NCBI GenBank assembly: GCA_025056745.1
Contig: JANWVQ010000060.1
Location: 1 to 51,884, forward strand
DNA: 51,884 bases
Source: Ignavibacterium sp.
Lineage (GTDB): Bacteria > Bacteroidota > Ignavibacteria > Ignavibacteriales > Ignavibacteriaceae
Direction of reading: 5' to 3'
This document shows positions 43,887 to 48,123 of this stretch, piece after piece. The notes under the pieces are model-generated. The model worked only from the letters and a program-made list of their open reading frames with translations, was not told the origin of the DNA and searched no databases. How positions within the stretch are numbered: position 1 is the first letter of the stretch; each line of letters starts with the position of its first letter. Made by a program: the position numbers and the translations under genes.

Positions 43887-44645
43887 CTACTCTATTACAA
43901 AATCAAAGTAAGTATTTGGATATGGTTCATTAATAAGAGTGAAGTGCCACCATTCGAGAGGATAATTTTTAAAGCCATATTTCTCCATAATAGTTTTCAG
44001 TAATAATCTATTGATTCTTTGGTTTAATTCTAAGTTATTATTTATCGTATGTGAAATTGGATGGAAACAATCATAACCAGAGCCCATATCTATAGAGTTA
44101 TCTTTGAATCTTCTATTTATTGGAAGAAAACACTCGCATAATTCTGATTTAATATTAAAACTATCTTGTTCTGGAACTGGAATTGGAACTATTGTAAGAT
44201 CTACTGTGCTGCCTCTGCTATGAGATGATTTTTCGGCAATATATCCATCTTTAATTAAATCTTTTTTATCAATTGTAGGATAAAATTCTTTTTTCGTCAA
44301 AGTGTCAGAAAGATCTTTTGCCCATCTTACAAAATGATTAACAGCTCTTTGTGGCCGATATCCATCATAAATTTTCAATGTTAAATTAAACTTTCTTAAT
44401 TCTTCCTGCACTTTTGCAAGGGATTCAGCTGCTGCTTTAGTTAGATAACAAATCTCTTTTTCATATCCATCAATCCGTTTACCTATGAAATTATGATCTC
44501 CATAATATCGAAGCTCAACAATAATATCAGGAATGACTTCTTTAACATTGACAAAATCATAAGGTCTTTTATCAATTATGTTTTGTGAATAGTTAAATGA
44601 AAAGAGGATGAATACAAGAAAAAGAATTTTCAGAAAAAATTTCAT
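43887..44645 (-). CDS. Exported D-Ala-D-Ala dipeptidase (VanX/DdpX, M15D)
   Basis: A zinc dipeptidase that splits D-Ala-D-Ala. The 252-residue protein has a signal peptide (about 1-20, MKFFLK...FNYSQ), so it should act outside the cytoplasm, unlike VanX. Landmarks are Arg97 in YDGYRPQRA, zinc ligands His142 and Asp149 in SSHSRGSTVDL, catalytic Glu231 and ligand His234 in EWWHF. All key residues of the M15D family are present. It is the last gene of a five-gene run with gaps of 6 to 19 bases that includes a sodium symporter. Confidence 0.9.
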   Translation of the reverse strand: MKFFLKILFLVFILFSFNYSQNIIDKRPYDFVNVKEVIPDIIVELRYYGDHNFIGKRIDGYEKEICYLTKAAAESLAKVQEELRKFNLTLKIYDGYRPQRAVNHFVRWAKDLSDTLTKKEFYPTIDKKDLIKDGYIAEKSSHSRGSTVDLTIVPIPVPEQDSFNIKSELCECFLPINRRFKDNSIDMGSGYDCFHPISHTINNNLELNQRINRLLLKTIMEKYGFKNYPLEWWHFTLINEPYPNTYFDFVIE

Positions 44646-44651
44646 TTCTCT

Positions 44652-45302
44652 TTAATACATAATTCCAAGACTGAGAGTTATGAAAAGTCCTGATAGATTT
44701 TTTTGAAACCTTCCATATAAACTTTCTACACCGTCACCAAAAAGTTTAATGTGATAATAACGAACATTAAGTCCAATTAAACTCGACTTATCCAGCCCAA
44801 AATTAGCTCCCAGCCCAGCATAACCTCCTACAGCCCACTGCGACTGAGCATTTCCGAAAGAGCTGAAAAATTCTTCAAGATATGGGGTTGTGATTATTAA
44901 AGAAGGTCCAACTCCAATGTTTATATAAGGCCTTAAATTTTCTGCTATTGAATTTTCAAACAATCGATATTGAATGCCTAAAAACATTGGCATTTGAAAA
45001 ACTCTATTCTTTTTACCGATGACAAAAGTGTTACCCCAATAATCGACGTATTCTATTTCTCTTTCATCTTTAGCTTCTGAAAAAGAGATATCAAAGTATG
45101 CAGTTATTTTATTATTCAATTGTTTTCTTACAAATGTTCCGACACCAAAACCAGCTTCACCAAACATAACATCAACACCCCAAGCACCATCTGGAAATTT
45201 TTCTAATGGTTTATCTGGTTGAACTTCGCCAAGTTTCTGTGCGAACAAGTCTAAGAGAGAAATAAATAAAATAATTGTGGTAAGACGCAAATATTTTTTC
45301 AT
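44652..45302 (-). CDS. Outer-membrane beta-barrel protein
   Basis: A 216-residue protein with a signal peptide (about 1-21). Strands alternate through the body: ITAYFDISFSEA, FQMPMFLGIQYRLF, YINIGVGPSLIIT, WAVGGYAGLGANFG, SLIGLNVRYYHIK and GLFITLSLGIMY. The final aromatic residue fits outer-membrane barrel assembly. It looks like the small 8-strand barrels of the OmpA/OmpW/PorT type. It lies between the symporter (16 bases) and the dipeptidase (6 bases), so it may be a porin for their substrate. That role is inference. Confidence 0.75.
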   Translation of the reverse strand: MKKYLRLTTIILFISLLDLFAQKLGEVQPDKPLEKFPDGAWGVDVMFGEAGFGVGTFVRKQLNNKITAYFDISFSEAKDEREIEYVDYWGNTFVIGKKNRVFQMPMFLGIQYRLFENSIAENLRPYINIGVGPSLIITTPYLEEFFSSFGNAQSQWAVGGYAGLGANFGLDKSSLIGLNVRYYHIKLFGDGVESLYGRFQKNLSGLFITLSLGIMY

Positions 45303-45318
45303 AGAGTTCCCAATTTAA

Positions 45319-47415
45319 TTACATCTCTTTTTCTGCGATTAGAGTAACGCCTTTAACAAATTGACCTTGTTCAAGATGCTCTTGGGTAATATAAACAATA
45401 CCATCTTCATCGTGAGGCTCACCATAAACAGTATGGCAAGATTTAAGGCCACCTAAATATTTTCTATGATCTGAAATATAGACAAGATCACCAACTTCAG
45501 CAGCCATTTTTTTCATATCATTCTTTGAAAAATTGATTGTGTTATCATTTCCTTCTTTTAATTTCCATATTACTTTAACTTTCTCACCTTCTCGATCATT
45601 TATCTTAGAACCTTTGAAGAATTCTTTAGCTTTGTTTATTGACCAAACGGTAAGTCCTAAAGTTTTTTCTTCTTCATTATAATCTATATAATAATGTGAA
45701 GCTAATACTACAAAGAAAACCATAACAAAAGTTAATACTATTAGAATAATCATTGGTAATAAGTTGAAAACAACCAAAGCAAATATTATAACCGAAACCA
45801 TTATCATCGAAGTCATAATTATTTTTCGATTAGGATTTCTTTTTATCAAATCCACAATCTTTATTTGCTGTTTTGTTGTGAGAGTTGTTAATACAGCAAA
45901 AAAGATACAAACAAATAGATTATACAAAGCACCGATATAAGTATATGGATGTTTGGGATCAAATGCAGTTCCGTGATCAAAGAACTCAATTAAAGGTCTT
46001 GGATAATACATACCTAATACCATCAACGCAACTCCACCAACTAAAGTTCCTATCACAGCCGAGTTATTAAATTTTTTCCAAAAAACTCCTAAGAAAATTG
46101 CAACTACTAGTGGAGGTGTTAAAGTTGAGTGAAAATAACCGTGAGCCTCATAAACCGTTGGAAATTTGCTGAAAGGGATGACAGAAAGAACTCCCAAAAA
46201 TGTAAATACAGCCGTTGCGATTCTTGCTGATGAAAGCTCTTGTTTATCTTCCTCTTCCCAAGTTTGAATTTTTTTTGTTAACCATTTTTTGATAGGCCTG
46301 TGAATATCATTTATATAAACAGCGGCAGTTGCATTTAAGAGAGTGTCAACTGTTGACATCAATGCTGCGGTTAAAGCAGCCATAATGAAACCAAACACGC
46401 CTGGATGCGAGATAATATTCGCTACAACTACGAAAATTGCGTCAGGATTTGTGTTTGGTGGAACAAGTTGAGGATTTGCAACAGAAATAGCTTTACCAAT
46501 CCATCCTGCATTTCCTACGACGATTGCTGAAATTGGGAGCATAAAAAGAATATTAAAAGCAGCAGCTTTTCGACCTTCATCTACACTTTTACAAGCCATA
46601 AATCTCATCACTAAGCCCATATTCATAAATAAAAAGCCAACAGAGCCAGCCACTCCATCTTGCCAAAATATTCCAACAAAATTAAAACCTGGTGGATCGT
46701 TAAAATGGGCAAATGGAAGTTTCCATTCGGTTGGTAAGAGATTCCAAAAAACACCAAATCCACCTATATAATCTACACCAAGAACAAATATTAGAATACC
46801 TGTGAAAATCAATACAAAGCCTTGCACGAGATCTGTAAATATGACAGCTGTTTGACCACCATAAGTAATATAAATTCCAATAACTAATGCAATTACAATT
46901 ACTAATCTCATCAAGTCAATTTCAATCGTGTAACCAAATAAATTAAATTCAGGTGGTAGTAATGGTAATAAAGCTTTACCCATTGTTAAAAAACCAATTC
47001 CAACATATCCAACCATATAAAGTAGAAGTAAGAATGTTGCAAAGAATCGTGTTAATGGAGAAAATCGTCTTTCAAAATATTCAGGGATAGATCTGATTTT
47101 AGTATAAACTATAATAGGTAGCCAGCCAAAAATGAAGAAAGGTACAAAGAACCAATCATTCATATAAGTCATTGTAGAAGAAAAACCAGCCTCAAAACCT
47201 TTTGCTGAATATTTAATAAAACTATGACTACCAACCCCTGTTGCAACAATACTCATTGCTATTAGCCACCAAGAAAATCTTCTTCCTCCAAAGAAAAAGT
47301 CAGTAGTTGTTCGATTATATTTGCTGAAATAAGCTCCAAAAGCCAGAATAACAATGAAATAGACTAACATTACTATCCAATCGCTGGCAGTTCCAAGACT
47401 ATGATGAGTTTCCAT
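45319..47415 (-). CDS. Sodium:solute symporter family protein with extra cytosolic domain
   Basis: A 698-residue inner-membrane symporter of the SSS family. About 14-15 helices fill residues 10-570. Markers are GRRFSWWLIAMSIVATGVGSHSF in the first helices (unwound TM1 region), ITYGGQTAVIFTDLVQGFVL (the SSS signature region) and LMSTVDTLLNATAAVY in the helix 8 region, where the Na+ site Ser/Thr lie. Residues about 609-698 form a hydrophilic domain (VGDLVYISD, YLGGLKSCHTVYG, VYITQEHLEQGQF). The solute is unknown. Two tiny membrane proteins precede it with 19-base gaps. Confidence 0.9.
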   Translation of the reverse strand: METHHSLGTASDWIVMLVYFIVILAFGAYFSKYNRTTTDFFFGGRRFSWWLIAMSIVATGVGSHSFIKYSAKGFEAGFSSTMTYMNDWFFVPFFIFGWLPIIVYTKIRSIPEYFERRFSPLTRFFATFLLLLYMVGYVGIGFLTMGKALLPLLPPEFNLFGYTIEIDLMRLVIVIALVIGIYITYGGQTAVIFTDLVQGFVLIFTGILIFVLGVDYIGGFGVFWNLLPTEWKLPFAHFNDPPGFNFVGIFWQDGVAGSVGFLFMNMGLVMRFMACKSVDEGRKAAAFNILFMLPISAIVVGNAGWIGKAISVANPQLVPPNTNPDAIFVVVANIISHPGVFGFIMAALTAALMSTVDTLLNATAAVYINDIHRPIKKWLTKKIQTWEEEDKQELSSARIATAVFTFLGVLSVIPFSKFPTVYEAHGYFHSTLTPPLVVAIFLGVFWKKFNNSAVIGTLVGGVALMVLGMYYPRPLIEFFDHGTAFDPKHPYTYIGALYNLFVCIFFAVLTTLTTKQQIKIVDLIKRNPNRKIIMTSMIMVSVIIFALVVFNLLPMIILIVLTFVMVFFVVLASHYYIDYNEEEKTLGLTVWSINKAKEFFKGSKINDREGEKVKVIWKLKEGNDNTINFSKNDMKKMAAEVGDLVYISDHRKYLGGLKSCHTVYGEPHDEDGIVYITQEHLEQGQFVKGVTLIAEKEM

Positions 47416-47434
47416 AATTTGAAAATCCGTTTTG

Positions 47435-47647
47435 TTATAGATAAAAAGCTGATAAAATTAATAGTGCGTGAATTAACATAAAGTAGAAAAACCCAATGAT
47501 CGTTATTCTCCACCAGTATCTATGTCTTTTGTTTTGAGGGTTATAGGCACCGGCTTTTTTTACTATAATTAACCCTGAGATAAAGAATATACCTCCTACA
47601 CCGTAGAGATAAATAAATGGAATCCAAGAATTATATATTAAATTCAT
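47435..47647 (-). CDS. Small two-helix membrane protein, copy B
   Basis: 70 residues with two transmembrane helices (about 8-27 and 47-68) separated by a basic loop (NPQNKRHRYWW). It is clearly homologous to the neighbouring 72-residue protein; both share SW(I/L)PFIYLYG(V/I)GGIFF and a closing helix LIHALLILSAFYL. I do not recognise a named family. It is 19 bases upstream of the symporter gene and is likely an accessory subunit, as small membrane proteins accompany some other symporters. Confidence 0.75.
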   Translation of the reverse strand: MNLIYNSWIPFIYLYGVGGIFFISGLIIVKKAGAYNPQNKRHRYWWRITIIGFFYFMLIHALLILSAFYL

Positions 47648-47666
47648 AATTAACTACTTTCTAATT

Positions 47667-47885
47667 TTATAAATAAAGCGCCGAAATAATTAAAAAAGCG
47701 TGGAGAAACATAAAAAAGAAATAACCACCATACAAAACTTTTACCCAGAACTTGTGGTTTCTTTTTTTAATATTCAATGCACCACTTTTATGAATTATAT
47801 ACATTCCAGAGAAAAAGAATATGCCACCAATCCCGTAGAGATAAATGAAAGGCAACCAAGATTGAAAGAATAATTGTAATTCCAT
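47667..47885 (-). CDS. Small two-helix membrane protein, copy A
   Basis: 72 residues, a paralogue of the next gene in the operon. It shares SWLPFIYLYGIGGIFFFSG in helix 1, a basic loop (KKRNHKFW) and FLHAFLIISALYL in helix 2. The N-terminus begins MELQLFFQ. It is the first gene of the five-gene run, with 19 bases to copy B. Two related but distinct small proteins suggest a heteromeric partner for the symporter. Confidence 0.75.
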   Translation of the reverse strand: MELQLFFQSWLPFIYLYGIGGIFFFSGMYIIHKSGALNIKKRNHKFWVKVLYGGYFFFMFLHAFLIISALYL

Positions 47886-48050
47886 AAATAATTCTTTTTA
47901 TTTTTATTTGAAAGATATAGAACAGCAATTTTTTCAGCAATTAATTAAATACTATCTATGATCAAATAATGAAGTTTTATTGAATTAATTAGAAGTAATT
48001 TAGAAATTTTGATTTTATTAGTTAAAAATTTTGATAAAGATAAAATAAAA

Positions 48051-48090
48051 AATGCCACAAAGGGATTTAGTCTTTTTTCTTTGTGGCATT
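48051..48090 (-). terminator. Terminator built from a CACAAAG inverted repeat
   Basis: AATGCCACAAAG (48051-48062) and CTTTGTGGCATT (48079-48090) form a perfect 12-base stem with a 16-base loop. On the minus strand a T-rich run (TTTTTATTTTA) follows directly, 34 bases after the stop of the fibronectin-type gene. The stem core matches the arms of the repeat at 391-486. Confidence 0.75.
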
Positions 48091-48123
48091 GACCTCCTAA
48101 AATTATAATGACTTAGTAAATTT

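What the first reader, a model, noticed from the sequence alone, without database searches (positions are those of the whole stretch)
43887..47885. Five-gene operon joining an SSS symporter with twin mini-membrane proteins and a VanX-type dipeptidase
Seen: five minus-strand genes with gaps of 6-19 bases: two paralogous two-helix proteins, symporter, outer-membrane barrel, exported dipeptidase with intact M15D residues. Known: E. coli ddpX is paired with an ABC permease for D-Ala-D-Ala. Inference: here the dipeptide enters through the barrel, is split in the periplasm by the signal-peptide-bearing enzyme, and free D-alanine is taken up by the Na+ symporter with its small partners. I know of no description of this arrangement.
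Basis: partly seen in the sequence, partly recalled or inferred. Interest (0 to 1): 0.7.

Follow-up and report, generated by a model that had tools for sequence, protein, structure and literature searches.

The report
Paired mini-protein symporter, probably phosphate-linked
The five genes are really there, but the conserved unit is a tiny membrane protein paired with a sodium-driven importer that, in related bacteria, sits beside phosphate-uptake genes, so it probably helps import phosphate; the cell-wall dipeptidase next to it is a local add-on in three close relatives.

Summary
In detail: five minus-strand ORFs with gaps of 6, 16, 19 and 19 bases encode two 70-72 aa two-helix proteins ("mini"), a 698-aa SSS symporter, a small beta-barrel and an exported VanX-type M15D dipeptidase with intact catalytic residues. 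The D-alanine pathway is not supported. Barrel and dipeptidase follow the symporter only in this genome and two close congeners. What is conserved is mini + symporter: in 80 GTDB loci from Ignavibacteriota and Neomarinimicrobiota a mini precedes the symporter in all but two, both cut by a contig end. In 59 relatives both genes occur together in 30 genomes; one has a mini only. The mini matches no Pfam or NCBIfam family. The symporter has a C-terminal double-psi beta-barrel. Neighbours point to phosphate: in 20 of 64 ignavibacterial loci the unit is divergent from pstSCAB-phoU (17), Npt-PhoU (2) or PiT (1), often over a TGTTAA-N5-TGTTAA repeat resembling a Pho box. In the genome with a mini but no symporter, the mini lies 27 bp upstream of a PiT phosphate transporter. 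Best reading: Na+-coupled uptake, most likely of inorganic phosphate, by an SSS transporter with a new small subunit. This is inferred from neighbourhood, not shown.

The parts
47667..47885 (-). mini1: 72-aa two-helix membrane protein, first twin; its clade (support 0.99) holds the first twins of other twin-bearing genomes
   Evidence: no Pfam or NCBIfam family
47435..47647 (-). mini2: 70-aa two-helix membrane protein adjacent to the symporter; its clade includes the mini that precedes a PiT phosphate transporter in G026 and several orphan minis
45319..47415 (-). 698-aa SSS (SSF, PF00474) symporter; Na2-site Ser354/Thr355 invariant; divergent subfamily in Ignavibacteriota and Neomarinimicrobiota
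45322..45678 (-). C-terminal double-psi beta-barrel domain of the symporter (residues 580-698; strands 613-696), ends ...EKEM
44652..45302 (-). 216-aa exported small outer-membrane beta-barrel; single-copy family in the order, joined here only in G000/G001/G002
43887..44645 (-). 252-aa exported VanX-type D-Ala-D-Ala dipeptidase (M15D) with catalytic and zinc residues
48045..48089 (-). terminator-like hairpin plus T run after the upstream 654-aa gene; marks the 5' boundary of the five-gene block
   Evidence: read by eye
47886..48123 (-). upstream region of mini1: no TGTTAA-N5-TGTTAA repeat here (best 8 of 12, shuffle p = 1.0), unlike many orthologous loci

Best explanation
The functional core is mini-mini-symporter. 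The symporter is a sodium-coupled importer of the LeuT-fold SSS family, and the two-helix mini proteins are its dedicated accessory subunits, acting like the small partners known for other SSS transporters (for stability, targeting or activity). The substrate is most likely inorganic phosphate: the unit is a secondary phosphate-uptake system used alongside or instead of Pst, PiT and Npt, and in many relatives it shares a Pho-box-like control region with them. The C-terminal double-psi beta-barrel is probably a cytoplasmic interaction or regulatory domain. Barrel and dipeptidase were joined to this unit in the ancestor of three closely related genomes; the dipeptidase probably trims cell-wall D-Ala-D-Ala in the periplasm independently. 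Shown: gene pairing, neighbourhoods, predicted fold and motif. Inferred: complex formation, substrate, regulation.
For: Pairing: a mini precedes the symporter at nearly every locus; co-occurrence in 30 of 59 genomes, with one genome holding a mini only. Phosphate: 20 of 64 ignavibacterial loci are divergent from a phosphate transporter gene: pst 17, Npt-PhoU 2, PiT 1 (Pfam identities). Three unrelated phosphate transporter types at the same place argue for function, not inheritance alone. In G026, which lacks the symporter, a mini of the mini2 clade lies 27 bp upstream of a PHO4/PiT gene. A TGTTAA repeat peaks at an 11-bp period in these regions: 12 of 24 regions reach 11 or more of 12 matches, against 2 or fewer at other periods tested. 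11 of 20 loci with an adjacent phosphate gene carry it, against 1 of 44 without. Period 11 fits the Pho box (PMC4415409). G000 at 99.8% completeness has no PiT and no Npt match, only Pst. Na2 residues align with SiaT Ser342/Ser343. Structural neighbours include SGLT-MAP17 and NIS.
Against: No SSS member is known to me to carry phosphate, and the parts of the 2021 review that I read or searched name no such case. In the window itself pst is not adjacent and the Pho-box-like repeat is absent; G001 and G002 have only weak matches. 44 of 64 ignavibacterial loci and all 51 Neomarinimicrobiota-type loci lack an adjacent phosphate gene. Most genomes also have other phosphate transporters, so it is rarely the only candidate. 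Neighbourhood can reflect co-regulation rather than substrate. The 20 loci are not phylogenetically independent.
Confidence: 0.52

Rival explanations
1. One reading: D-Ala-D-Ala enters by the barrel, is split by the periplasmic dipeptidase, and D-alanine is imported by the Na+ symporter with its small partners.
For: Tight gaps and the same five-gene order in three genomes; in G000 the block stays intact although both flanks differ from those in G002 (pst on C35; carboxyltransferase on C5), which fits one operon. VanX active site intact.
Against: The link exists only in three close congeners; dozens of orthologous symporters have no dipeptidase nearby. The barrel is a widespread single-copy family with other neighbours. 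Phosphate neighbourhoods point elsewhere.
Confidence: 0.07
2. The mini-symporter unit belongs to the phosphate-starvation response but carries something else, for example an organophosphate or phosphonate, or a carbon or osmotic solute.
For: Same neighbourhood and motif evidence; characterised SSS members mostly carry organic solutes or small anions (PMC7918813).
Against: The neighbours are inorganic phosphate transporters of three families, and I saw no phosphonate genes beside the unit; a mini sits directly in front of a PiT gene.
Confidence: 0.2
3. The symporter is a general nutrient transporter whose phosphate neighbourhood is an inherited accident of gene order in one bacterial order; the substrate is some other solute taken up constitutively.
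For: Neomarinimicrobiota loci lie in a different conserved context (mannose-1-P guanylyltransferase, EF-G, HIT) and show no adjacent phosphate gene.
Against: Three unrelated phosphate systems occupy the same divergent position, and a mini precedes a PiT gene in a genome without the symporter.
Confidence: 0.16
4. The symporter acts mainly as a phosphate sensor or regulator of Pst signalling, with the double-psi barrel as output.
For: Extra conserved domain; adjacency to pst-phoU; SSS-domain sensor kinases exist (PMC7918813).
Against: Na2 site fully kept; tandem copies in several genomes and presence in genomes without a PstB match.
Confidence: 0.05

Closest known systems
SSS/SLC5 symporters (SiaT, vSGLT, SGLT1/2, NIS)
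   Same: SSF domain, LeuT-type fold, Na2-site residues
   Different: Distant in sequence (about 20-25% to solved structures); own subfamily with a C-terminal double-psi beta-barrel and a mini gene as constant neighbour; probable phosphate link
SGLT1/2-MAP17
   Same: SSS transporter with a small membrane partner (PMC10803289, found)
   Different: MAP17 is a eukaryotic partner; the mini matched no Pfam family and no PDB chain
Bacterial SSS small partners (YjcH-ActP, YhdT-PanF, DUF4212 and DUF3311 pairs; from memory)
   Same: Short two-helix protein encoded next to the SSS gene
   Different: None of these families is among the Pfam families listed for the 48 mini members at E up to 1
Pst, PiT (PHO4) and Npt (Na_Pi_cotrans) phosphate transporters
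   Same: Neighbours and probably shared control; one PiT gene has a mini upstream
   Different: Unrelated protein families
VanX / DdpX / PcgL D-Ala-D-Ala dipeptidases (M15D)
   Same: Catalytic and zinc motifs
   Different: Exported; about 30 extra residues between the two conserved blocks; scores 201 against the 320-bit VanX cut-off; not beside van or ddp genes

Membership tests
SSS/SSF symporter (PF00474) | SSF profile over its cut-off | tested here: met
   138.5 bits against 22.8
SSS/SSF symporter (PF00474) | Na2 Ser/Thr pair in TM8 | tested here: met
   Ser354/Thr355 invariant in 28 sequences, aligned with SiaT Ser342/Ser343
SSS/SSF symporter (PF00474) | Na+-coupled solute uptake | not testable with these tools
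   needs a transport assay
Known SSS small-subunit families (DUF485, DUF997, DUF3311, DUF4212) | profile match of the mini | tested here: not met
   48 members scanned; scattered weak single hits only, none to these families in the listed top 25 of 31; NCBIfam likewise
Accessory subunit of this symporter | gene pairing and co-occurrence | tested here: met
Accessory subunit of this symporter | physical complex | not testable with these tools
   no complex prediction offered
Pho regulon member | Pho-box-like 11-bp repeat and divergent phosphate genes in relatives | tested here: met
   20 of 64 loci adjacent; 11 of these with the repeat
Pho regulon member | Pho-box-like repeat at the window's own copy | tested here: not met
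   best 8 of 12, p = 1.0
Phosphate transporter | phosphate transport | not testable with these tools
   inferred from neighbourhood only
M15D VanX-type dipeptidase | M15 profile and catalytic/zinc motifs | tested here: met
VanX equivalog (NF033115) | score over the curated cut-off | tested here: not met
   201 of 320 bits
Double-psi beta-barrel (symporter C-terminus) | fold match | tested here: met
   model pLDDT 87; Foldseek to DPBB and p97-N structures, best E 1.8e-6

The most novel reading that the evidence does not exclude
A new branch of the SSS (SLC5) family that imports inorganic phosphate with Na+, works with a previously unnamed two-helix subunit that can also partner a PiT phosphate transporter, and carries a double-psi beta-barrel regulatory domain; spread across Ignavibacteriota and Neomarinimicrobiota.
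Probability: 0.45. Interest if true: 0.75.

Novelty: new variant of a known kind. Interest (0 to 1): 0.52.

Why it matters
Phosphate uptake is essential and is thought to rest on a few transporter families. A phosphate carrier in the SSS family, which includes the human glucose and iodide transporters, would add a new one and show that this branch of the LeuT fold can handle phosphate. The mini gives a clean bacterial case of a small constant partner of an SSS transporter, comparable to SGLT-MAP17. Both claims are directly testable. For the original finding, it shows that a tidy operon in one genome can mislead about substrate.

Tried and rejected
D-alanine route: rejected as main reading because barrel and dipeptidase are not conserved neighbours. 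Barrel as dipeptide porin: judged unlikely, since it is a widespread single-copy family with other neighbours. Mini as a known Pfam/NCBIfam family: no convincing match; PDB profile search gave only one chance-level hit. Shared C-terminal domain between the symporter and the G026 PiT protein: tested, none found. Repeat upstream of all minis: only loci with an adjacent phosphate gene, plus one, carry it at 11 or more of 12. Absence of all other phosphate transporters in symporter-bearing genomes: seen in only three (G409, G412, G416), at least some of them incomplete, so weak. PHO4-lacking share in symporter-plus against symporter-minus relatives (8 of 30 against 4 of 27, counted) is not a clear difference. 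The 364-aa protein between pstS and the permease genes in some loci, which I first labelled OprP, has no Pfam match, so that label is dropped. Literature searches gave no SSS phosphate transporter.

Full report
Observation. The five minus-strand ORFs are present with gaps of 6, 16, 19 and 19 bases. Domain searches give an M15 dipeptidase, a weak small outer-membrane barrel, an SSF symporter and two proteins without any family. The dipeptidase keeps the VanX motifs. The genome is a 2.74-Mb, 99.8% complete assembly whose closest named relatives are Ignavibacterium MAGs.

The five-gene block is a local arrangement. It occurs in G000, G001 and G002 only. In G004 and G005 the twin minis and symporter lie beside pst, while barrel and dipeptidase lie elsewhere; in the single-contig genome G005 they are hundreds of kilobases apart. 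The barrel is found once per genome in 56 of 59 relatives, usually next to an AddB-like gene and a CYTH gene. The dipeptidase in G003, G004 and G005 precedes a glyoxalase-fold gene and a carboxyltransferase gene set (probably methylmalonyl-CoA epimerase and a decarboxylase, by similarity), and in G001 and G002 the block still runs into these genes. In G000 both flanks differ: pst is on contig C35 and the carboxyltransferase on C5, yet the five genes stayed together. That fits one transcription unit but says nothing of substrate.

The conserved unit is mini plus symporter. Of 80 GTDB loci found with the symporter, a mini lies directly upstream in all but two, both starting at a contig end. One locus (L037) has a second symporter without its own mini. 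Among 59 relatives the symporter subfamily occurs in 30 genomes and the mini in 31, the extra one being G026. The mini has ten invariant residues in 48 sequences (W8, Y13, L14, Y15, G18, G19, F22, W45, G52, H60). Twin minis form two separate clades across several genera, so the duplication is old; mini2-type genes also occur alone in some genomes.

The symporter. Sequence and fold place it in the SSS family near SiaT, SGLT and NIS. Ser354 and Thr355 match the Na2 serines of SiaT. About 119 C-terminal residues form a conserved extra domain, modelled at pLDDT 87 and matching double-psi beta-barrels. Its side of the membrane is not established.

The phosphate link. In 20 of 64 ignavibacterial loci the gene divergent from the first mini is a phosphate transporter gene: pstS of a pst operon in 17, an Npt gene followed by a PhoU-domain gene in 2, a PiT gene in 1 (identities). 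In G026 a mini lies 27 bp upstream of a PiT gene, in the same direction. The intergenic regions often contain TGTTAA-N5-TGTTAA; the 11-bp period stands out against all others tested, as expected of a Pho box built of 11-nt direct repeats (PMC4415409). Of 20 loci with an adjacent phosphate gene 11 carry it at 11 or 12 of 12 matches; of 44 without, 1; of 51 Neomarinimicrobiota-type loci, 0. The upstream region of pstS in G000 carries it (11 of 12) but the window's mini1 does not (8 of 12). The loci are related, so I put weight on the three different transporter families rather than on the count.

Limits. Substrate, complex formation and regulation are inferred. Most genomes have other phosphate transporters, and absence of all of them was seen in only three assemblies. 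The reading for the window itself rests on orthology.

Verdict. The anatomy is confirmed, the D-alanine model is not supported, and the best-supported reading is a sodium-driven, probably phosphate, importer with a new small subunit, to which a barrel and a dipeptidase were joined in one small lineage.

Noticed in passing
L169:5301-7826 (G026): A mini gene 27 bp upstream of a 758-aa PHO4/PiT transporter in a genome without the symporter.
   Followed up: partly
L247, L257, L209: PiT (L247) or Npt-PhoU (L257, L209) genes divergent from mini-symporter over a perfect TGTTAA-N5-TGTTAA repeat.
   Followed up: yes
L170, L171, L172, L173, L205: Orphan mini2-type genes without a following symporter; in L171 and L172 they lie between def and coaD, where relatives have a second mini-symporter pair.
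   Followed up: partly
L162:12801-16675: Unusually long PstC-like (744 aa, propeller-like hits) and PstA-like (545 aa) permeases in this genus.
   Followed up: no
L258, L259, L095: Frame-broken symporter copies next to intact minis (G006 and a K_DeepCast MAG).
   Followed up: no
L050-L112 (Neomarinimicrobiota): In most of these loci mini-symporter is the last pair of a conserved run: Ig-like protein, mannose-1-P guanylyltransferase, small protein, EF-G, HIT.
   Followed up: partly
L161, L162: In G001 and G002 the five-gene block runs into epimerase-like and carboxyltransferase genes, the neighbours of the dipeptidase in other congeners.
   Followed up: yes
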